Shown here: positions 1 to 27,556 of the stretch, piece by piece
Layout of the letters: each line of letters begins with the position of its first letter
Numbering within the stretch: the first letter of the stretch is position 1
Source: an uncultured Methylococcaceae bacterium
GTDB lineage: Bacteria > Pseudomonadota > Gammaproteobacteria > Methylococcales > Methylococcaceae
Length of the DNA stretch: 35,012 bases
Reading direction: 5' to 3'
Assembly (NCBI GenBank): GCA_903930145.1
Contig: CAIYXP010000034.1
Coordinates: forward strand, 1 to 35,012
Notes under the pieces: generated by a model
Databases searched by the model: none
What the model was told of the DNA's origin: nothing
The model's input: only the letters and a program-made list of their open reading frames with translations
Program-made: the position numbers and the translations under genes

Positions 1-1312
1 ACTCCAAATGGCTGGAGGCGAAACTGGAATAACAAATTGGTTGATAAACATAGGAAAATTGGAAGTTCTGGAATTCATAGAGCCAAATGAAGGAAAAGCC
101 ATCCGTATGTTCCAGTCAGTAAATGACCGTGGTGTACCTCTATCGAAAATGGACATCGCCAAGAGCCTTCTGATTTATAACTCAAATCGTTTTCTCAATG
201 GCAAACTTGATCAATTCATTGCAGACCAATTTGGGGCCGCATTTCGAGATTACAGTCATGTTAAGGGGCTTGCTACTGAAGACGGATACAAAATTCGCCA
301 TATTGATCGAATTGTCTTTCGCGAAGATGATGTTTTCAGGTATCACTATTTTTGTTACAACCCAGACAATTATAATGTTAATGCCGAGTTCGACTATACC
401 GCAAGTTCTGAGACGGTGCTTGAAACATTTCTGAAGCCTGTTCTAAAACAGCTACGAGCCGATAGGCAATTACTTGAGACTTTCATCCGAGAGTACGTCT
501 CTGATCTTGCGTGTTTTTTCTCGGCCTTCAGAAGTTTGATTGAGGAGGTTCGCACAGATAAGGCACTCTACCTGATTTTTGTGGTGGGCGATCTAGCTGC
601 GACGCTATATCCCCTTACGATCCGTTTAGCCATGCGAGGTGACATAAGAACAGCCATAGACTCGGCAAATGGGATGAATTTATTGCGGTTGATCGAAATA
701 GCCGATTTGCGCGTATTCAAGATACGAGGAACCAATCCACAGGCTGATATTCTCAATTTAAGTAGAGAATCTGCAGGAAAACCAATTGAGGAAATTGCAG
801 AGTATTTGCGCTGCTTTGTTAAAAAATTTATGGATGACGGTTTATTCGAGTCACGACTTTCTCAAGAAAATCTCTATCGTAATCCTGGATTAGTTAGAAT
901 ACTCACTGCGGTTGAGGAAAAACATAGTAATCGTCCGCAAAATAATCAACTCAACATTGCAAGTTTGATCGCCTTAGTCAAGTCAGGTCAAACTGTGGAG
1001 CATATTCTTTCACAGGAGCCTTCATTTGGAGTTAAAGCTTACGGTTTTCAAAGTCGTGAACTATATCAAAATTACATTCATCGTCTTGGTAACCTCACGT
1101 TGCTTGAAAGTGTCTTAAATAGTGCTAGTAACAACCAATCTGTCGAAACAAAGATGGGTAGTAAAAAACTTTATCGTGTTTCGAAGTATCAAATGACAAA
1201 ATCGCTTGCGGCAACTGGTGCATCACAAACGCCAGCTTTCTCACGTAATGAAATAGATAGGAGAGGGGCAGACTTGGCAAGTTTCTGTGTCAATGAATGG
1301 CCCTTATGGTAA
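1..1312 (+). CDS. GmrSD-like DUF262/DUF1524 nuclease, 3' part
   Basis: The reading frame is open at the left edge, so the true start lies outside the window; the first in-frame ATG here, at 8, is probably internal. The visible 434 residues hold the tail of a DUF262 domain (the stretch around VNDRGVPLSKMDIAKSLLI) and, near the C-terminus, a DUF1524 HNH-type nuclease motif: VEHILSQ with its His near residue 332, then HRLGNLTLLES, a following Asn, and a K..Y..S tail. In GmrSD-type (type IV) systems DUF262 is a ParB-like NTPase that steers the HNH domain to modified phage DNA. The gene is clearly more AT-rich than the downstream core genes, which suggests transfer. What is seen is the two-domain signature; a modification-dependent defence role is inferred from the family. 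The target is unknown. Confidence 0.8.
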   Translation, partial: LQMAGGETGITNWLINIGKLEVLEFIEPNEGKAIRMFQSVNDRGVPLSKMDIAKSLLIYNSNRFLNGKLDQFIADQFGAAFRDYSHVKGLATEDGYKIRHIDRIVFREDDVFRYHYFCYNPDNYNVNAEFDYTASSETVLETFLKPVLKQLRADRQLLETFIREYVSDLACFFSAFRSLIEEVRTDKALYLIFVVGDLAATLYPLTIRLAMRGDIRTAIDSANGMNLLRLIEIADLRVFKIRGTNPQADILNLSRESAGKPIEEIAEYLRCFVKKFMDDGLFESRLSQENLYRNPGLVRILTAVEEKHSNRPQNNQLNIASLIALVKSGQTVEHILSQEPSFGVKAYGFQSRELYQNYIHRLGNLTLLESVLNSASNNQSVETKMGSKKLYRVSKYQMTKSLAATGASQTPAFSRNEIDRRGADLASFCVNEWPLW

Positions 1313-1778: not shown

Positions 1779-3858
1779 ATGATCTACAACCCCCAACATT
1801 CCCTAGAACTCCTGCGCTTAGGTTCAGGCCGGGGCGATGCCCATTTCCGCGAAGGCCAAGATGAGGCGATCCGCCATATCGTCGAAGGCAAAAGCCGTCT
1901 GTTGGTGGTGCAAAAAACCGGATGGGGTAAGAGCTTTGTCTATTTCATCGCCACCAAGCTATTGCGTGAAACCGGTTTCGGGCCGACTTTGCTGGTTTCG
2001 CCGCTGCTGGCTTTGATGCGCAACCAGATCGCCGCCGCGCAACGGATGGGGGTGCGGGCCAGTACAATCAACTCGGACAATCAGGACGACTGGGAAGCCA
2101 TCGAGTCCAAATTGTTGAGGGACGAAATCGACATCTTGTTGATTTCACCCGAACGCCTGGCGAACGGTCGTTTCCGTACCCAAGTGTTGGCAGGCATTGC
2201 AGCCCGTATTGCGCTGCTAGTGATTGACGAAGCGCATTGCATCTCCGATTGGGGGCATGATTTTCGCCCACATTACCGGCTGTTGGAACGCATCGTCCGC
2301 ACCTTGCCACCGACTCTACGACTATTGGCGACCACAGCCACCGCCAATAACCGGGTGATGGACGATTTGATGGCGGTGCTTGGCCCGAATTTGGAAGTGT
2401 CGCGGGGCGACTTGAACCGCTCCTCGCTGACGTTGCAAACCTTGCGCTTACCCGGGCAAGCAGAGCGCTTGGCTTGGCTGGCAGGGCAGCTTGCCACGCT
2501 ACCGGGACATGGCATCATCTATACCTTGACGGTACGGGATGCGAATTTAGTTGCCGATTGGTTAAAACAGCAGGGACTCAACATCGAAGCGTATACCGGC
2601 GAGACGGGGGAGCGCCGGGAAATGCTTGAACAAGCCTTGCTGGATAATCGGGTCAAGGCACTCGTCGCCACAACGGCTTTGGGGATGGGTTATGATAAAC
2701 CCGATTTGGCTTTTGTGATCCATTACCAGACACCCGGTTCGGTCGTGGCCTATTACCAACAGGTGGGCCGTGCCGGGCGCGCCTTGGACGCTGCCTACGG
2801 CATCTTGCTCAGTGGTCAAGAAGAGACCGAGATTAATGAATATTTCATCAAATACCGCCTTCCCTACACGGCAGGACGTTGCCGAGGTCATTGAAGCCTT
2901 GGAGTCTGCCCCCAATGGCTTGTCGGTTCCCGAACTGATGAGCCGGGTTAACCTTAGAAAAGGGCGCATTGAAAAAACCATCGCTTTGCTGGCCCTTGAG
3001 TCCCCTGCGCCGATAGCCAAACATGAGAGTAAATGGCAGTTGACGGCAGCCCGCTTGAGCGAACACTTCTGGCAGCGGGCGGCCCGGTTGACCGCCTTGC
3101 GACGGGAAGAACAAACGCAGATGCAAAAATATGTGGGTCTGACTGAGGGACACATGGCTTTCTTGATAAGCGCACTCGACGGCGACCCCACATTGGTCAA
3201 GCCGCCGACTTTGCCGTCGTTGCCTAGTCAAATTGATCCTAGGCTGCTACAGGATGCCATAACCTTCTTGCGCCGCACTAGCTTGGATTTTGAACCGCGC
3301 AAGATTTGGCCTGCCGGGGGAATGCCGCAGTATGGTGTAAAAGGCAAAATTGCCGCCGAGCATCAGCCACAAACGGGCAAAGCCTTGTGCGTATGGGGCG
3401 ATGCCGGTTGGGGTGGCTTGGTGCGGCAGGGCAAATTCCATGACGGCCGTTTTGCGGATGAATTAGTTGAGGCTTGCGTCAAGCTATTCCGCGAGTGGAA
3501 CCCCCAGGTTGGGCCAACTTGGGTGACTTGCATTCCTTCATTGCGCCACCCGAACTTGGTGCCCGATTTTGCGGCACGTCTGGCAGCGGCGTTGAATTTG
3601 CCGTTTCATATCGTATTGGCAAAAACCGATCACCGACCCGAACAAAAGACTATGGCAAACAGCATTCAACAAGCCCACAATATCGACGGTTCGCTGGCAA
3701 TTTGTGTAGACAGGCTTCCACGCCGGGGTCCGGTGCTGCTAGTGGATGATATGGTGGATTCGCGCTGGACGTTTACCGTCGCTGCCTGGCTGTTGCGCAC
3801 CCATCGTGGAGGCGAAGTTTGGCCCTTGGCCTTGGCGCAAACCGGACACGATCAATGA
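1779..3858 (+). pseudogene. RecQ-like helicase fused to phosphoribosyltransferase domain, frameshifted
   Basis: Frame one (1779-2894) encodes a RecQ-type superfamily 2 helicase: Q-motif-like FREGQDEAI (residues 23-31), Walker A QKTGWGKS (45-52), DEAHC (150-154), and motif VI QQVGRAGRA (from 327). After EINEYFI the reading frame is lost. The expected continuation NTAFPTRQDVAEVIEALE lies one frame over and runs open to 3858. Removing one A from the AAA at 2850-2852 restores a 692-residue protein. The second half has a winged-helix-like segment (GLSVPELMSRVNLRKGRIEKT) and, near residue 650 of the restored protein, a PRPP-type loop [14 protein letters not shown] like that of ComF/phosphoribosyltransferases. 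The last codon overlaps the next gene's ATG, so the two genes are coupled. The lesion may be a true mutation, a sequencing error or recoding; the intact downstream frame argues that it is recent or artefactual. Confidence 0.8.
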
Positions 3859-4838
3859 CAACCAGCCTTTCCCCGAACACCCAAGCCATTTTGCTGCTGA
3901 CTGCCCCATTGATTGCGGGAAAGTCGGCGAGTTCGCCCGATCTGTTGAAACCCAGCGAATACAAACGGCTGGCTTGCCATCTACGCGAACTGCAACGCCA
4001 ACCGGCAGATTTCCTTTCGCCCGATGCAACGGAATTATTTCGAGACTGTGATAATTTGGTTGACGTAGAGAGGCTACGGCGCTTACTGGATCGTGGTTTT
4101 TTACTCAGCCAAGTGGTTGAGCATTGGCAGACTCGCGCAATATGGGTGGTCAGCCGTGCCGATGCCGATTATCCCCGTCGCTTGAAGGCCCGTCTGCGCG
4201 AAGACGCCCCGGCGGTGATTTATGGTTGCGGCGACCGACGCTTGCTGGACACTGGGGGCTTGGCGGTGGTCGGTTCCCGTCATGTGGATGAGGCGATGAT
4301 TGACTTCACGATGAAGATAGGCCAGCTTTGTGCGAAATCGGGCAGGACGTTGATTTCCGGCGGGGCCAAAGGCATAGACCTAGCGGCCATGCGTGGCACA
4401 TTGGAAGCCGGGGGCAAGGTTAGCGGCATCATGGCGGATAGTTTGGAACGCACCGCCATGAACCGAGAACACCGGAATTTGCTGCTTGACGGTCAATTGG
4501 TGTTGATTTCCCCTTATGACCCTGCTGCCGGTTTCAATGTTGGCAATGCCATGCAACGCAATAAGCTCATCTATGCGCTGGCGGATGCGGCTTTGGTGGT
4601 GGAGTCTGATTTCAACAAAGGCGGAACTTGGGCCGGTGCAGTGGAGCAATTGGACAAATTGCGCTTGGTTCCGGTATTTGTCCGTTCCACTGGCGAGTTG
4701 GGCAAGGGTTTGCCAGCGTTGATGGAAAAAGGCGCACTGGCTTGGCCTAATCCTGTGGATGTTGACGATTTTAATGCCGTGTTCGATGCAAAAGCAACTT
4801 GTTCGGTAAGCGAGCAGTTGGATCTATTTCAAAGCTAA
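3855..4838 (+). CDS. DprA/Smf-like DNA-processing protein
   Basis: I choose the ATG at 3855 because it overlaps the upstream stop (ATGA), giving 327 residues; an earlier in-frame ATG at 3819 would sit inside the previous gene. The protein has a DprA-type Rossmann fold: [14 protein letters not shown], then [20 protein letters not shown], then [18 protein letters not shown] and GGTWAGA. DprA proteins bind single-stranded DNA and load RecA during transformation. This one departs from canonical DprA: the segment after the GG motif reads MNREHRNLL instead of the usual YP..N..L. It belongs to the DprA-like proteins found beside defence helicases rather than the housekeeping copy. Function with the RecQ-phosphoribosyltransferase protein is inferred from coupling. 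The gene itself looks intact. Confidence 0.85.
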
Positions 4839-4942: not shown

Positions 4943-6565
4943 ATGAACCTACGCATCGCCATTGCTCAAATCAACCTCCTTGTCGGTGACATCGCCGGTA
5001 ACGCCCGCCGTGTCTTGGAAACAGCCGCCCAAGCCAGGGACAGGCTGCAAGCCCATGCCGTGGTGTTCCCGGAACTGACGCTATCGGGCTATCCACCGGA
5101 GGATTTGCTGTATAAATCGCATTTCCTCCAACAAATTGAAGTGACTCTGTTGCAAGTGGCAAGGCAGATAACTGACATCACCGTGATTCTGGGTTTCCCT
5201 GAACTGTCTGACGGCATTCTTTACAACAGCGCGGCGGTGTTGCGCGACGGAGAGGTGCATAAGATTTACCGCAAGCAGGAATTGCCGAATTATGGGGTCT
5301 TCGACGAGAGGCGCTATTTTCATCCAGGAAAAGAACCCTGCGTGTTTGATCTGGAAGGCGTGGCAGTGGGTGTCACCATTTGCGAGGATGTTTGGTTGCC
5401 CGGAGCAGTGGAGCAATCGGCGGCGGCCGGTGCTAAGTTGATGCTAAACCTGAATGCCTCCCCGTTCCAGACGGGTAAAACCAAGCAAAGGGAACAAGCG
5501 GTGCTGGAAAGGGTCGCCGCCAGTTGCATCCCCATGGTATATGTCAATTTGGTGGGTGGTCAGGATGAACTGGTGTTTGACGGGGCTTCCTTTGTCATGG
5601 ATGCCGACGGGGAGGTGGTTTACCGCGCCACTCGTTTCAGGGAAGTGCTGGATGTCGTGGAATTCGACAAGCAAAGCGATGGACTGGTTGCATTGCCGGG
5701 CGAGAAGGAACAATCGGAAGGCGAGGTTGCCTATGTTTACAAGGCACTGGTACTGGGCATACGCGACTATGTGATTAAAAATGGCTTTCAAGGTGCGGTC
5801 CTTGGATTGTCAGGAGGCATAGACTCGGCATTGACCTTGGCTCTGGCGGTTGACGCCTTGGGTGCTGACAAGGTGGAGGCGGTCATGATGCCGTCCCGTT
5901 ACACGGCGGACATGAGCGTGGAGGATGCGCGCTTGGAGGCCGATGCCTTGGGCGTGGAATACCACGTCATTCCTATTGAGCCAGCCTTCCAAGCCTTCAC
6001 CGGTTTGCTGGCAGACACTTTTGCTGGCTTGCCCCGCGACACTACAGAGGAAAATATACAAGCCCGTTGCCGTGGCGTATTACTGATGGCGATTTCCAAT
6101 AAAATGCGCAAAATATTGCTGACAACTGGCAATAAAAGTGAAATGAGCGTGGGTTACGCGACGCTGTACGGTGACATGGCTGGCGGTTTTGCGCCCTTGA
6201 AGGATGTGCCCAAGTTGCTGGTCTACCAGCTTAGTGAATACCGCAATTCAATCAGCCCGGTGATTCCGTTGCGCGTCATTGAACGTCCGCCTTCGGCAGA
6301 ATTGGCCCCGGACCAGAAAGACGAAGATTCGCTGCCTCCTTATTCGGTGCTAGACCCGATTTTGGAGCGGTATGTGGAGTGGGATCAATCGGTGGAAGAA
6401 ATTATCGCAGCGGGCTTTACCGAGGCCGATGTGGTGCGCGTGGCACGGTTGGTGGATATTAACGAGTACAAACGCCGCCAAGCACCTCCGGGTGTGAAAA
6501 TCACCCGCCGAGCCTTTGGGCGAGACCGTCGCTACCCAATCACCTGTGGCTTTGGCCGAAAATGA
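4943..6565 (+). CDS. nadE: Glutamine-dependent NAD+ synthetase
   Basis: This cytoplasmic enzyme makes NAD+ from deamido-NAD+, ATP and glutamine, the last step of NAD biosynthesis. The start at 4943 (MNLRIAIAQINLLVGD) gives 540 residues, the usual length of the two-domain form. The N-terminal nitrilase-type glutaminase domain shows the Glu-Lys-Cys triad at E44 (FPELTLSGYPPEDL), K111 (YRKQELPNYGVFDE) and C147 (VGVTICEDVW). The C-terminal synthetase domain has the ATP-pyrophosphatase P-loop LGLSGGIDSA (about 288-295) and the typical ending ITRRAFGRDRRYPIT. The in-frame extension upstream to 4799 lies over the end of the dprA-like gene and lacks family similarity. No clear Shine-Dalgarno sequence precedes the ATG. 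Confidence 0.95.
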   Translation: MNLRIAIAQINLLVGDIAGNARRVLETAAQARDRLQAHAVVFPELTLSGYPPEDLLYKSHFLQQIEVTLLQVARQITDITVILGFPELSDGILYNSAAVLRDGEVHKIYRKQELPNYGVFDERRYFHPGKEPCVFDLEGVAVGVTICEDVWLPGAVEQSAAAGAKLMLNLNASPFQTGKTKQREQAVLERVAASCIPMVYVNLVGGQDELVFDGASFVMDADGEVVYRATRFREVLDVVEFDKQSDGLVALPGEKEQSEGEVAYVYKALVLGIRDYVIKNGFQGAVLGLSGGIDSALTLALAVDALGADKVEAVMMPSRYTADMSVEDARLEADALGVEYHVIPIEPAFQAFTGLLADTFAGLPRDTTEENIQARCRGVLLMAISNKMRKILLTTGNKSEMSVGYATLYGDMAGGFAPLKDVPKLLVYQLSEYRNSISPVIPLRVIERPPSAELAPDQKDEDSLPPYSVLDPILERYVEWDQSVEEIIAAGFTEADVVRVARLVDINEYKRRQAPPGVKITRRAFGRDRRYPITCGFGRK

Positions 6566-21391: not shown

Positions 21392-24300
21392 ATGTCTTCA
21401 TCCAACAACGATACCAACAAACCTGTTGCGAACCCAGTGACGGTTCAAGCTCCAACCACTGCGGGTGCTGCGGTCCATGCTGCCTTGGGCGATTCCGCCC
21501 TCGGAGATGATAATGTCAACCCCTGCCTAGGCACGACCCTCAACTCGTTCACTGACAATGTCAGCGTCAACAACATGACCGGGGAAGTGTCGGTGCAGGT
21601 TCCTTTGGTCAATCGGCCCACCCAGCAAGGCTTGGGTCCCGATTTAGCCTTCAGCCTCGCCTACAACAGCACCAGCCCCGGTGCAACCTCGCAAATTGTC
21701 AGCCCTTATTTGCAATTTCTGTCACCCTATTTCTCGGATAACTCCGACAAAGAATGGGTGGCGGGCAGCCTGGAAATTGACTGGGACCTGGATTTGCCTG
21801 CCATCATTGTCACTGATGTCAGCAGTACCGTTTATACTTTGCGCTTTCAAGGGCAAAGCTATCAGGCCAACACCAATTCCGATGACAGCAGTTCGTCTAA
21901 AACCGATTTTTATTACGCGAAAGATTTGGAAAACGCCAACAAGCTCCAGCTTTCGTATACCTCTGGCAGTAATATCAAAAACGGGGTCACGGTGATCACC
22001 GCGGACGGGACTCGATATAGCATCAATACTAAAACACCCCAAGGCCATTATTTGCTCACTTCCATCACCAAAGCCAATGGCAATTCACTGAGCTTTCACT
22101 ACACCGCACCCGCCTATTCGACGAGTGCCGGTGTGGTCACGCCGGGCAGCCTGACCGTGAAAGACAATCAGGGCACCCAAGTGGTTAGTTTGGTGGCGAC
22201 CTATACAGGGGGCATCGGTTTAGACTACATCCCATGCCTGCATGTCAACTACTCCAACCCCGCCAGCGCCGCCAGTGGCAGTGTCTATGATATTTTTGCG
22301 AAAATGAGCCTGAACCAAGACATGGTTTCATTTTCGTCTTCGGGCAGTGCGCTGACCGCAAGCACGCCTTACCACTATGCCTACACCAGCGTCAGCGTCG
22401 GTTCGACTAAATATTACAAGCTGTCCACCGTCACTTATCCCACTGGAGCCTACACCCAGTTCAATTGGCTGAAAGGTGGGTATGTGGTGAAGTACGGCGT
22501 GGTGCATATCACCGAATCGGATGGAACTATCGATCACACCTTCCAATATTCATTCGCCCCAGTGGACACCCAAGTCTATTATGATTATCTAGGTAATCAG
22601 CTGTGGTCGAACCAGTATTACTACAGCGAAGACCAGGCGAATGGTGTCACCAGTGGCGGCGATAATAACGGGGCGACCTTCCAATGCCCCAATATGCATT
22701 ATTTTGACACCAACGAGATGTCCAAAGGCGTGCAAGCCACCAACAATTGGTTAGACCCGCTATTCCATAGCTCAGAATGGAACTGTAATTGGAATATTAT
22801 AACTGGTAAGCCGTTCTGTCAGAACGGGGGATGCTTTGAGTCGGGCAATGTCTCGCAGTTGATCAATGGGCAAACCTTTTCGGTCTATCAGATCACCACG
22901 TATCCCGACGGCGTTATGACGAAGACGGTCAACACCTACGACGCGCTCCAGCGACTAAAATCCACTCAAGTCATCACGGGCAATGCTTCAGCTTCTGCCT
23001 ATCCAGTTGCCACCACCACTTACCAGTATCCGGTGAATGTCAATCAACTAGGCGAGGGGCCAAACGGCGATTTGACTTACCATAATTATGGCCTGCTGCC
23101 ACCCAATTTCAACAAGCCGACCCAAGTGCAAACCACCAGTTTTTCCTTGTTCAATGGCAATCCGATAACGGGAGGAGATCAAACGACGACGACGACCAAC
23201 CAGTATGACGCGCATGGCAACTTGACCAGTTCAACGGTGTCCAGCGGCGTGACGACGGCTTACACCTATTATCAAGGCACTAAGCCCTGTGGCATCAACC
23301 CGTACATCACCAGCATTTGCACCACACCCAGCTCCCTGCCCAGCGTCGGCATTTTGGGTTCCTTGTCCGCAGCTCAATTTGTCACGCCGGGTTCCAGCCC
23401 TCAAGCCATCACCAGCAACATCAGCAGCACCAGCTACACGACGATGTTCGGCGGCGGGGTCATTTTGCCGCTCACCCAAACCTCCCTATTGAACGGCAGC
23501 ATCAATGGCCCGGTCACGCGCACCCACGCCTATGACAGTCTGGGACGGGTCAGCAGTGTGGTTGAATCCGGGGATTTTGGCACTTGCACGCAAACCATGA
23601 GCTACAGCCTGGATGCCCAGGGCAACCAGACCATCACTACAACGACAAGCTACGGCGGCGGCGCGACCGGCCCGACCCTGCCGACCACGGAAGTGGTTGA
23701 TTTCCTGGGGCGGACGATTTCCTCCACCGACAACCTGGGTCGGACGACGCTGTATCAATACGATAGCTTAGGACGCATCACCCAAGAAACCGATCTGGCC
23801 AATCTGCCGCCGGCCTGGCAACTGGGGACCACCTATGCCTATGAGATAATCACTGGCAATGCCTCCACCACTGGCGGAACCAGGACTACCGTCACCACAC
23901 CGAACGAAGCGCAGGTCATTTATACCTTTGACAGCGTTGGTCGCCAGACCAGCAACCTGATCAGGCCGGTGACCGTGGTGCAGCACCTCGTTCGCAGCTT
24001 TACCTATGCCACTAAAGCGGCGGATGGCGGGCCTTGCGGCAACCAAATGACGGCTTCGACAACCCACATCGCCGACGGCAGCAGCGTGACGGTTGACTAT
24101 TACTACAATGCTCTGGGTGATTTGATCGCCTCCATCCCACCGGCGGGCTCGCCGGGTTTGGCGCAGGCGACGATTAATCTTGTGGCGGGGAATTATGCCT
24201 ACGCGCTGACATTCAACTTCACCTATGCCCCCCAGTCGAACTCCCCGATCACCCCCTACGGCTTGGCCAGCTTGGTGCAGAAGGATGCCATCACTGGGGC

Positions 24301-27300
24301 CACCGCCAACATTTACAACTTCGACAGTCAGGCGCTGCAACTCGGCAATGCGTCTGGCAACACCGTAAACGATGTGCTGAGTGGCATGAATTTTAGTTCC
24401 TATTTGTTAAATGCTGATCTTTCCGTCAACACGGCGGCACTAATGACGGTGGCGAATAGCGCGACGACCACCGCCTACACGTATGACACCTTGTTCAGGC
24501 TGGTGGATGAAACTCTGACCGGCGCAGGTACTGGCAAATCGCTGACCACGACCCGAGGCTATGACAGCAATGGCAGACTGACGCAAATGCAAGACCCGAA
24601 GGACAACTTGTTTACCCTGGCCAACGACGCGATGGGCAATCCGACCCAGTTGTCGGTGGCGACCCCAGGCGGGGGGAACTACTATTTGGCGACCGCCAGT
24701 TACAATGCCGCCGGTCAGAAAACCAGCTACGCTAACACGCCCTCGACCACGGCGAATGTCAACCCGATCACCTACACCTACGATTCGACGACGGGTATGC
24801 CGCTCACCGAAACCGACGCGCTGGGCAACACCATCCATTACCTTTTCTACCCGACTGGCTTGTTAGCGGCGGCCTGGAGCCAGGTGGAAACAGGTTATTA
24901 TTTGTGGACAGCGGTGCAATACGATTCATATGGCTCGGTGCTGTTTCAAAGGAATGGGGCTATCAGTACTCAACCTTCGTTGACCAACCTCAAGCCTTAC
25001 CCGGCGGATGCCATCTATAGCTATACCTACAACGAAGACGGCCAACTCGTCACCAAGACTGTGCAATACTTTGATCAACAGCTCTGTACGACCACCTACG
25101 GTTATGACGATTGTGGCAACATGAACACCTACACCGACCCGTTTGGGCAGACAATCAGCGCAAGCCTGGACCCATACGGCAGGCAATCGGCGATGCAAGC
25201 CACTGTCCAGGGCACGCTGCTGCACCAACTGCAATTTGCCTATGACAGCCTGGGAAGACTTTCCAGCTTAGCTAAAACCAGCCATCAAAGTTGTCAAACG
25301 CCACAAGGCGTTGCTGAATCTTTCCAGATTCAAAGCAACCGCAGCTATAGTTATGACCATTTGTTGCGAACCGTTGGTGTGTCCGATCTAACCGCCACGC
25401 CCAACCTCTCTAACAATGGTCTGACTAACTTTGGACAAAATCTTAAGTACAACCTATGGGGGAATGTCACCGCCAATAACCTGCAATTCCTTGATCAAAA
25501 CGGCAGTGTGCTGGGCGAGCTTGACCAAGGCTACACCTACGATCAGTTTGACCGGCTGACGGGTTATAACGTCAGTCCGTCGGATTCCAGCTTCCTGCCC
25601 GGCGATGCCAAGGGCCATAAGATCGTCGCCCAAACTTTTGCCTATGACGGACTGGATAATACGCAATCCGTCACGACCGCCTATTTGGACGGGACCAGCG
25701 CAAGCGCCCCGGTGACGACCGAAACGGTGAGTTATGGCTATAACGCCAGCCTGCCGTTCCAATTGGAATCGGTGTCGGGGTACGCCGCGATGGCGTATGA
25801 CACCCTGGGCCGGGCCACTACGGATGCCTATGGCAATAGCCTGGTTTACGATGCCGCCGGTTATGTCAGCACGATCACGCAAAGCAATGGCGAGGTGATT
25901 AGCTACAGTTATGGGCCGGATCGCATCCCGTTTAAAGAGACATCCAGCGACGGCACTAGCCTGTATACCTATCTGACCGATAACAGTGTGACGGCACGCG
26001 CAGACAATACTGGCAAAACAGCCATCAAAACCTTGATTGGCTTTGGGGGTCCAACCCAGTTCACCACGCTTGATTTGTTGGGCAACCCGGTCTTGACAAA
26101 ATCCTATCAAGCGGAGTACCCGAACCTTAATGCCCAAGTCCCCACCGTGCAAGAAAGCGTCAGCCTGCAAAACGTTTATTCCCCGACCGGCATCCAGACT
26201 AACTTAAAGGGTGCAAACCCCTCCGCCGGGTATCCGCAAAACCTGCAACCCGCTACCGGCAATGGCTCGCCTTTGTTGGTGGACAACCTAACGGGCGGCG
26301 GTCTGGGGCTTAACAACGAGATCACCGACCCGCTGACCGGCTATCAAATCTTGGGCGGCTACCGGGCATACGACCCTAATCTAGGGCGCTTCAATAAACC
26401 TGACAGCTTTTCACCGGGTATCGCAGGTCTAAACCCCTATGCCTACACCAGCAACCAGTTTGTCGGTTGCTCCGACCCGACCGGCCACTACACCTACACC
26501 TACAAAAGTTACGGCGTGGCCAAGCGGGCGATCAAGAGAAGGGCGGAGGAGCAGGATAGTTTCTGGCAACAAGTGGCTAGTTCCTACAAGTCGGTGCTGG
26601 TCAACCTGATCAAGCATCCGACCAACCCCAGCAGCTATGTGGCCGCCGCCATGCTGGCCCAAAACCCCACCTCCCCCATCTTGGCGGCGGTGGCTTCCCA
26701 ACTGGGGCAAGCCAGCCCGGTGGGGGCGGTCATTGCGGGGGCTTATGCCGGTGTGCAAACAGCGGTGGACGGCGTTTGCACGATGGGCGTGGTCAGCTAC
26801 AATCCGCAAACCGGCCTGGGTAGCCTGAACACCGCAGGGGCGGGCAATATGCTCGGCATGATGAGCCTGGGCTATCTGAACATGTCGCCGAATGGCACGG
26901 TGCAAGTCCATGCCGGTCATAGCTTTTTGACCCATTTGAAAAATGAAGGCAAAGGTGCGGCTGACATGCTGGAAAACATCATCGGCGGCATAGCCGGGGT
27001 CGGCATCGGCCTGTGCTATGACATGCCGGTGGATTTTATGAAGGGCGAATATTATCAGGCCGGCTTCGCCATAGGGATGAACACCGCGTTGTTGGTCTCC
27101 ATGATCGCCGCGCCAGAAGACGCCCCGGCCGAGGCTGGCGCCGCCGATGCCGGGGCAGATGCCGCCTCCGCAGAGGAGGCCGCCGCCGCGACCAAAGCCA
27201 GAACCGCCGCCAAAGAGCTGGAAAATTTGCCGCATAACAAAGCAGAGGCTTTCACCCAGAAATTTATATCATCAGCCGCAGACGATGCCAAACTGACAAA

Positions 27301-27556
27301 GGGTGTGCAAGGCTATGGAAAGGCCGTGGACAGGACGTTTAGCGGAAAGATAGGCTCCAAGGCATGGCGCATGATTAAGGCCAAACGGTTCACCGATTAT
27401 GCGGCGGAATTCCTGGGCGGCAAAATCGGCAGCGGGATCACCAACCTCGGCACCTACTCCAACTTGAATATGACCGACCCGCGCAGCCCTTGGTCCACGG
27501 CGGCTTGGCAGAACCAGCTTTACCGCCAAGGGCCGTACACCCCTGACAAGAACTAG
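21392..27556 (+). CDS. Giant Rhs/YD-repeat protein with unidentified C-terminal region
   Basis: A 2054-residue protein with at least a dozen YD repeats between about residues 520 and 1560 (for example YDSLGRVSSV, YDSLGRITQE, YDSNGRLTQM, YDTLGRATTD). The Rhs-associated core follows near 1645-1700 (DPLTGYQILGGYRAYDPNLGRFNKPD, then NPYAYTSNQF, SDPTGHY with D1695). YD repeats form a closed shell around a C-terminal toxin that is cleaved off at the core. Here the last 350 residues are variable: Gly/Ala-rich hydrophobic segments, an acidic Ala-rich stretch, and a basic final 100 residues. No known toxin motif is recognisable. The N-terminus lacks a signal peptide or PAAR-like segment, so the export route is unclear. 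A good Shine-Dalgarno sequence supports the start. No immunity gene is visible downstream. Confidence 0.92.
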   Translation: MSSSNNDTNKPVANPVTVQAPTTAGAAVHAALGDSALGDDNVNPCLGTTLNSFTDNVSVNNMTGEVSVQVPLVNRPTQQGLGPDLAFSLAYNSTSPGATSQIVSPYLQFLSPYFSDNSDKEWVAGSLEIDWDLDLPAIIVTDVSSTVYTLRFQGQSYQANTNSDDSSSSKTDFYYAKDLENANKLQLSYTSGSNIKNGVTVITADGTRYSINTKTPQGHYLLTSITKANGNSLSFHYTAPAYSTSAGVVTPGSLTVKDNQGTQVVSLVATYTGGIGLDYIPCLHVNYSNPASAASGSVYDIFAKMSLNQDMVSFSSSGSALTASTPYHYAYTSVSVGSTKYYKLSTVTYPTGAYTQFNWLKGGYVVKYGVVHITESDGTIDHTFQYSFAPVDTQVYYDYLGNQLWSNQYYYSEDQANGVTSGGDNNGATFQCPNMHYFDTNEMSKGVQATNNWLDPLFHSSEWNCNWNIITGKPFCQNGGCFESGNVSQLINGQTFSVYQITTYPDGVMTKTVNTYDALQRLKSTQVITGNASASAYPVATTTYQYPVNVNQLGEGPNGDLTYHNYGLLPPNFNKPTQVQTTSFSLFNGNPITGGDQTTTTTNQYDAHGNLTSSTVSSGVTTAYTYYQGTKPCGINPYITSICTTPSSLPSVGILGSLSAAQFVTPGSSPQAITSNISSTSYTTMFGGGVILPLTQTSLLNGSINGPVTRTHAYDSLGRVSSVVESGDFGTCTQTMSYSLDAQGNQTITTTTSYGGGATGPTLPTTEVVDFLGRTISSTDNLGRTTLYQYDSLGRITQETDLANLPPAWQLGTTYAYEIITGNASTTGGTRTTVTTPNEAQVIYTFDSVGRQTSNLIRPVTVVQHLVRSFTYATKAADGGPCGNQMTASTTHIADGSSVTVDYYYNALGDLIASIPPAGSPGLAQATINLVAGNYAYALTFNFTYAPQSNSPITPYGLASLVQKDAITGATANIYNFDSQALQLGNASGNTVNDVLSGMNFSSYLLNADLSVNTAALMTVANSATTTAYTYDTLFRLVDETLTGAGTGKSLTTTRGYDSNGRLTQMQDPKDNLFTLANDAMGNPTQLSVATPGGGNYYLATASYNAAGQKTSYANTPSTTANVNPITYTYDSTTGMPLTETDALGNTIHYLFYPTGLLAAAWSQVETGYYLWTAVQYDSYGSVLFQRNGAISTQPSLTNLKPYPADAIYSYTYNEDGQLVTKTVQYFDQQLCTTTYGYDDCGNMNTYTDPFGQTISASLDPYGRQSAMQATVQGTLLHQLQFAYDSLGRLSSLAKTSHQSCQTPQGVAESFQIQSNRSYSYDHLLRTVGVSDLTATPNLSNNGLTNFGQNLKYNLWGNVTANNLQFLDQNGSVLGELDQGYTYDQFDRLTGYNVSPSDSSFLPGDAKGHKIVAQTFAYDGLDNTQSVTTAYLDGTSASAPVTTETVSYGYNASLPFQLESVSGYAAMAYDTLGRATTDAYGNSLVYDAAGYVSTITQSNGEVISYSYGPDRIPFKETSSDGTSLYTYLTDNSVTARADNTGKTAIKTLIGFGGPTQFTTLDLLGNPVLTKSYQAEYPNLNAQVPTVQESVSLQNVYSPTGIQTNLKGANPSAGYPQNLQPATGNGSPLLVDNLTGGGLGLNNEITDPLTGYQILGGYRAYDPNLGRFNKPDSFSPGIAGLNPYAYTSNQFVGCSDPTGHYTYTYKSYGVAKRAIKRRAEEQDSFWQQVASSYKSVLVNLIKHPTNPSSYVAAAMLAQNPTSPILAAVASQLGQASPVGAVIAGAYAGVQTAVDGVCTMGVVSYNPQTGLGSLNTAGAGNMLGMMSLGYLNMSPNGTVQVHAGHSFLTHLKNEGKGAADMLENIIGGIAGVGIGLCYDMPVDFMKGEYYQAGFAIGMNTALLVSMIAAPEDAPAEAGAADAGADAASAEEAAAATKARTAAKELENLPHNKAEAFTQKFISSAADDAKLTKGVQGYGKAVDRTFSGKIGSKAWRMIKAKRFTDYAAEFLGGKIGSGITNLGTYSNLNMTDPRSPWSTAAWQNQLYRQGPYTPDKN

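What the first reader, a model, noticed from the sequence alone, without database searches (positions are those of the whole stretch)
1779..4838. RecQ-phosphoribosyltransferase fusion coupled to a DprA-like gene: a competence-like defence module?
Seen: a RecQ-type helicase domain, then a winged-helix-like segment, then a ComF-like PRPP loop ([14 protein letters not shown]), and an ATGA-coupled DprA-like protein. Natural transformation uses a ComFA helicase, the ComFC phosphoribosyltransferase-fold protein and DprA. Here the same three kinds of activity occur in two coupled genes beside GmrSD-like and Uma2-like remnants, so a role in handling invading single-stranded DNA is a reasonable inference. 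I cannot match this pair to a named system with confidence.
Basis: partly seen in the sequence, partly recalled or inferred. Interest (0 to 1): 0.75.

Follow-up and report, generated by a model that had tools for sequence, protein, structure and literature searches.

The report
Known bacterial toxin–antitoxin pair, PsyrTA
The two genes are a copy of PsyrTA (also called RqlHI), a bacterial self-poison-and-guard pair already catalogued as phage defence; in this methane-eating bacterium's assembly the poison gene is broken by one extra base, so the find is ordinary.

Summary
The helicase part (1779-2894), the winged-helix/phosphoribosyltransferase part (2836-3858) and the ATGA-coupled DprA-like gene (3855-4838) match PADLOC PsyrT (E 8e-173 and 2e-93, together spanning the 689-position model) and PsyrA (E 3e-125). 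This is PsyrTA = RqlHI, a toxin-antitoxin pair published in 2013-2015; the ComFA/ComFC/DprA comparison was already made in 2015. The host is Candidatus Methylumidiphilus (Methylococcales). Five of six other genus genomes carry psyrT uninterrupted, with psyrA next to it. In the window psyrT is broken by a single-base insertion at 2850-2852. Both halves still show strong purifying selection (dN/dS 0.07 and 0.10), so the break is recent or an assembly error. In 77 of 77 loci with enough downstream sequence, from many phyla, psyrA follows psyrT. Neighbours are restriction and other defence genes (236 PADLOC models hit, against 4 around recQ); no competence family appeared among the listed neighbours. 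The genome has canonical DprA, ComEC and a ComF-like protein elsewhere. The competence reading is not supported; the defence reading is, but is not new, and direct evidence that PsyrTA blocks phages is thin.

The parts
1779..2894 (+). psyrT (rqlH), helicase half: RecQ-like DEAD helicase, 371 aa until the frameshift stop
   Evidence: PADLOC PsyrT PDLC03928 positions 5-362 of 689, E 7.9e-173; 56% identical to an E. coli plasmid PsyrT/RqlH
2836..3858 (+). psyrT, second half in another frame: winged helix plus phosphoribosyltransferase domain; the ATG at 2836 is window-specific
   Evidence: PADLOC PsyrT positions 357-687 of 689, E 2.4e-93; invariant D304, D305, D308, S309, W311, T312; DNA alignment
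2850..2852 (+). site of the single-base insertion (AAA, relatives have AA) that breaks psyrT
   Evidence: alignment with five genus relatives; only indel not a multiple of three in about 12.1 kb aligned to G001
3855..4838 (+). psyrA (rqlI), DprA/SLOG-fold antitoxin, 327 aa, ATGA-coupled to psyrT; intact; lacks the C-terminal winged helix of many PsyrA
   Evidence: PADLOC PsyrA PDLC03927 E 2.9e-125; 43% identical to E. coli PsyrA; alignment A2
8..1312 (+). neighbour: GmrSD-like (type IV restriction) gene, 5' part cut by the contig end
   Evidence: PF07510 E 1e-15, PF03235
1438..1698 (+). neighbour: truncated Uma2-family fragment; a 190-aa Uma2 lies at the same place in G003
   Evidence: PF05685; blastn
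4943..6565 (+). flanking core gene nadE-like (NAD synthetase), border of the variable defence site in G000, G001 and G005
   Evidence: sequence; synteny with G001 and G005

Best explanation
This is PsyrTA/RqlHI, a two-gene toxin-antitoxin module used in, or at least kept with, anti-phage defence. Most likely working of an intact copy: PsyrT uses its helicase on DNA, and its phosphoribosyltransferase domain is the harmful part (inferred to act on the nucleotide pool or on DNA via PRPP); PsyrA, a DprA-like protein, binds PsyrT and holds or reverses the damage until infection or DNA damage upsets the balance, giving growth arrest or death of the infected cell. Shown by others for RqlHI: toxicity needs the PRTase domain, helicase and RqlI restrain it, and the two proteins bind. 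Inferred: the trigger and the chemistry. In this genome psyrT is interrupted by one inserted base at the helicase/winged-helix border, leaving psyrA intact: most likely a recently inactivated toxin with its antitoxin left behind.
For: PADLOC PsyrT/PsyrA matches over full length; 56/38/43% identity to the E. coli pair; psyrA directly downstream in 77/77 loci with at least 0.6 kb of downstream sequence; psyrT uninterrupted in five of six other genus genomes, with psyrA beside it (whole in four, cut by the contig end in G006); defence neighbours in the genus: D12 methylase (G001), two C5 methylases plus HNH nuclease (G002), Uma2 (G003), D12 methylase plus GmrSD_N (G005); 71 neighbours in 36 loci hit 236 PADLOC models against 4 for 74 recQ neighbours; hsdM-hsdS-psyrT-psyrA-hsdR on an E. 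coli plasmid; toxin biology from PMC4670107; ShosTA mechanism as reviewed in PMC12593503.
Against: In the one native-host and K-12 test I could read, PsyrTA gave no detectable phage protection and slowed growth (PMC12409345). The E. coli relatives have a Gly in the PRPP loop, while this clade has Arg there, so the chemistry may differ. dN/dS gives no sign of relaxed constraint after the break, which fits a very recent event or an assembly error equally.
Confidence: 0.85

Rival explanations
1. The frameshift is a sequencing or assembly error and the organism carries a working PsyrTA.
For: Single-base change in a short A run; both halves conserved at dN/dS 0.069 and 0.095, like pairs of intact genes.
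Against: No other indel breaking a reading frame in about 12.1 kb aligned to G001, so the contig is otherwise clean; a run of three A is short for such an error. Broken psyrT also occurs elsewhere (G063, G131, and at least seven of 82 loci).
Confidence: 0.3
2. The split is tolerated or used: helicase and winged-helix/PRTase are made as two polypeptides, the second from ATG 2836.
For: A window-specific substitution makes ATG 2836 in the right frame just before the insertion; both halves remain constrained.
Against: One genome only; no convincing ribosome-binding site in the sequence; [quoted passage not shown] coli (PMC4670107). No other locus shows a clean split there (L103 breaks near it but is broken twice).
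Confidence: 0.08
3. Competence-like DNA-uptake module that handles incoming single-stranded DNA.
For: Same kinds of parts as ComFA, ComFC and DprA; the similarity was discussed in PMC4670107 and PMC5512222.
Against: Separate canonical DprA, ComEC and ComF-like genes in the genome; neighbours are defence genes, and no competence family among those listed; no transformation detected with the E. coli isolates that carry the pair (PMC4670107).
Confidence: 0.03
4. A DNA-maintenance helicase pair rather than defence.
For: RqlH is a working helicase in M. smegmatis, and RqlHI out of balance causes SOS and mutation (PMC4670107); in this genus PsyrT is the only close RecQ-family match in most genomes.
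Against: Patchy distribution (about 2% of sampled class genomes), defence-island neighbours, and loss of the whole pair had no detectable fitness cost in PMC4670107.
Confidence: 0.1

Closest known systems
PsyrTA (Pseudomonas syringae; Sberro et al. 2013; PADLOC PDLC03928/PDLC03927)
   Same: Same two families in the same order, full-length profile matches
   Different: Toxin gene interrupted by one base here; antitoxin shorter at the C-terminus
RqlHI of extraintestinal E. coli (PMC4670107)
   Same: RecQ-like helicase with C-terminal PRTase followed by a DprA-like partner; helicase motif I lysine, DEAH aspartate and PRPP-loop aspartates conserved
   Different: The E. coli plasmid form has DSGWT in the PRPP loop, this clade DSRWT; two well-supported branches in the tree
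ShosTA
   Same: PRTase toxin plus DprA-like antitoxin; PsyrA matches the ShosA model and the solved ShosA chain 9vzo
   Different: The second half matches ShosT only weakly (E 0.001), and ShosT (a 237-position model) has no room for the helicase
ComFA/ComFC/DprA natural transformation genes
   Same: Same broad kinds of domain
   Different: Different helicase family; DprA, ComEC and a ComF-like protein are separate genes in this genome; different neighbours

Membership tests
PsyrTA / RqlHI | Toxin gene with RecQ-like helicase plus C-terminal PRTase matching the PsyrT profile | tested here: met
   Two matches cover positions 5-687 of 689, but in two frames
PsyrTA / RqlHI | Uninterrupted toxin gene (needed for a working system, not for family membership) | tested here: not met
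   One-base insertion at 2850-2852; uninterrupted psyrT in five of six other genus genomes
PsyrTA / RqlHI | DprA-like partner directly downstream, overlapping or close | tested here: met
   ATGA overlap 3855-3858; PsyrA E 2.9e-125
PsyrTA / RqlHI | Conserved helicase and PRPP-loop residues | tested here: met
   TGWGKS, DEAHCISDW and DDxxDSxWT conserved
PsyrTA / RqlHI | Toxin harms the cell and the partner relieves it | not testable with these tools
   Shown for E. coli RqlHI in PMC4670107
Anti-phage defence system | Located among defence genes | tested here: met
Anti-phage defence system | Reduces phage plating | not testable with these tools
   No protection in the one test read (PMC12409345)
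Natural-competence locus | Neighbouring, or the genome's only, DNA-uptake genes | tested here: not met
   DprA, ComEC, ComF-like elsewhere; none in the listed neighbour families

The most novel reading that the evidence does not exclude
In Candidatus Methylumidiphilus PsyrTA may have replaced the housekeeping RecQ helicase: six of seven genus genomes have PsyrTA and no canonical RecQ, the seventh has RecQ and no PsyrTA, and genus g19 shows the same split (4 against 5, one with neither). A defence toxin would then double as a repair helicase.
Probability: 0.06. Interest if true: 0.5.

Novelty: new member of a known kind. Interest (0 to 1): 0.15.

Why it matters
Mostly as a correction: a pair that looked unnamed is a catalogued toxin-antitoxin system, and the competence comparison is already in print. 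It adds a methanotroph genus with a variable defence site beside nadE, and an example of a toxin gene broken while its antitoxin stays whole.

Tried and rejected
Competence locus: rejected on genome content and neighbours. General exclusion between PsyrT and RecQ: tested over 370 genomes of the class and rejected, since seven of eight other PsyrT carriers also have a second RecQ-like match; the pattern is confined to two genera. Phage carriage: only two IMG/VR contigs and one weak partial phage record. Structure of the second half: modest model (pLDDT 68), weak matches to PurF and HPRT folds. The first dN/dS run for the second half used the wrong frame and was redone. The founding PsyrTA paper and the M. 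smegmatis RqlH paper are not in the library.

Full report
What is there. The window begins in a GmrSD-like gene and a truncated Uma2 fragment, followed by three overlapping reading frames and then a nadE-like gene. The first frame (1779-2894) is a RecQ-like helicase; the second (open from 2770, first ATG after that at 2836, stop 3858) is a winged helix plus a phosphoribosyltransferase-type domain with [13 protein letters not shown]; the third (3855-4838) is DprA-like and overlaps the second by ATGA.

What it is. PADLOC names all three: PsyrT for the first two (E 7.9e-173, positions 5-362; E 2.4e-93, positions 357-687 of 689) and PsyrA for the third (E 2.9e-125). An annotated E. coli plasmid pair is 56% (helicase half), 38% (second half) and 43% (PsyrA) identical. 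PsyrTA is the same system as RqlHI: PMC4670107 calls PsyrT an RqlH ortholog and PsyrA the RqlI ortholog. That paper showed that RqlH harms E. coli without RqlI, that the harm needs the phosphoribosyltransferase domain, that this domain alone is not enough, and that the two proteins bind. The same paper and PMC5512222 already compared the pair with ComFA, ComFC and DprA.

The broken toxin gene. Same-genus relatives have psyrT uninterrupted (G001, G002, G003, G005, G006); psyrA beside it is whole in four and cut by the contig end in G006. Aligned to five of them, the window's only indel in the psyrT gene is one extra A at 2850-2852. Over about 12.1 kb aligned to G001, the other indels are all of three bases. 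Reading each half in its own frame, dN/dS against G001 is 0.069 and 0.095, in the range of intact pairs (0.049 and 0.144 for G001 against G002). The break is therefore recent or an error; I favour a real, recent inactivation, without being able to see reads. Interrupted psyrT is not rare: G063, G131 and at least seven of 82 loci.

Recurrence. Scans of genome and viral contigs gave 82 loci from many phyla, including Pseudomonadota, Cyanobacteriota, Acidobacteriota, Planctomycetota, Chloroflexota and Actinomycetota. PsyrA follows PsyrT on the same strand in all 77 loci with at least 0.6 kb of sequence after it; the other five end within 150 bases. The host genus is Candidatus Methylumidiphilus: contig G006:C130 has the length and match of QJPH01000574.1.

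Surroundings. In the genus the flanks differ between species and are mostly restriction-type genes, with nadE on one side in G000, G001 and G005: a variable defence site. Across 36 other loci, 71 neighbouring proteins hit 236 PADLOC models; 74 neighbours of canonical recQ genes hit 4. Many PADLOC models describe the same methylases, so these counts are of models, not of independent systems, and the control genomes come from one order. No competence family is among the 25 listed Pfam families (77 matched in all). In E. coli the pair can sit inside a type I restriction operon, hsdM-hsdS-psyrT-psyrA-hsdR, and the same order occurs in L129 and L130.

How it probably works. By analogy with RqlHI and with ShosTA, whose toxin is reported to disturb purine metabolism and whose DprA-like antitoxin binds DNA (PMC12593503), the phosphoribosyltransferase is the harmful part and PsyrA the guard. 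Trigger and chemistry are inferred. Two cautions: in one study PsyrTA gave no detectable phage protection (PMC12409345), and this clade has Arg where the E. coli form has Gly in the PRPP loop.

Verdict. A known system in a new host, with its toxin gene broken in this assembly. Low interest; the RecQ pattern in two genera is the one loose end.

Noticed in passing
G000-G006 and genus g19: PsyrTA and canonical RecQ do not co-occur in either genus (6 against 1; 4 against 5, one neither), though they do in other families.
   Followed up: partly
L168:1700-11779; L129:1623-11594; L130:1527-11615: psyrTA is embedded between hsdS and hsdR of a type I restriction operon, recalling how prrC sits in such operons.
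   Followed up: partly
L067:4020-4922, L069:4020-4922, L146:4020-4922: A WYL-domain regulator (identified in L067; the other two are 94-98% identical) lies directly upstream of psyrT on the same strand.
   Followed up: no
window 3855-4838; alignment A2: PsyrA of this genus lacks the C-terminal winged helix present in most other PsyrA.
   Followed up: no
74 loci with a readable motif: The PRPP-loop glycine is replaced by Arg or Lys in 52 of 74 PsyrT; the tree has two main branches, one mostly Gly and one mostly Arg.
   Followed up: partly
window 21392-27556: A 2054-aa protein with RHS repeats.
   Followed up: no
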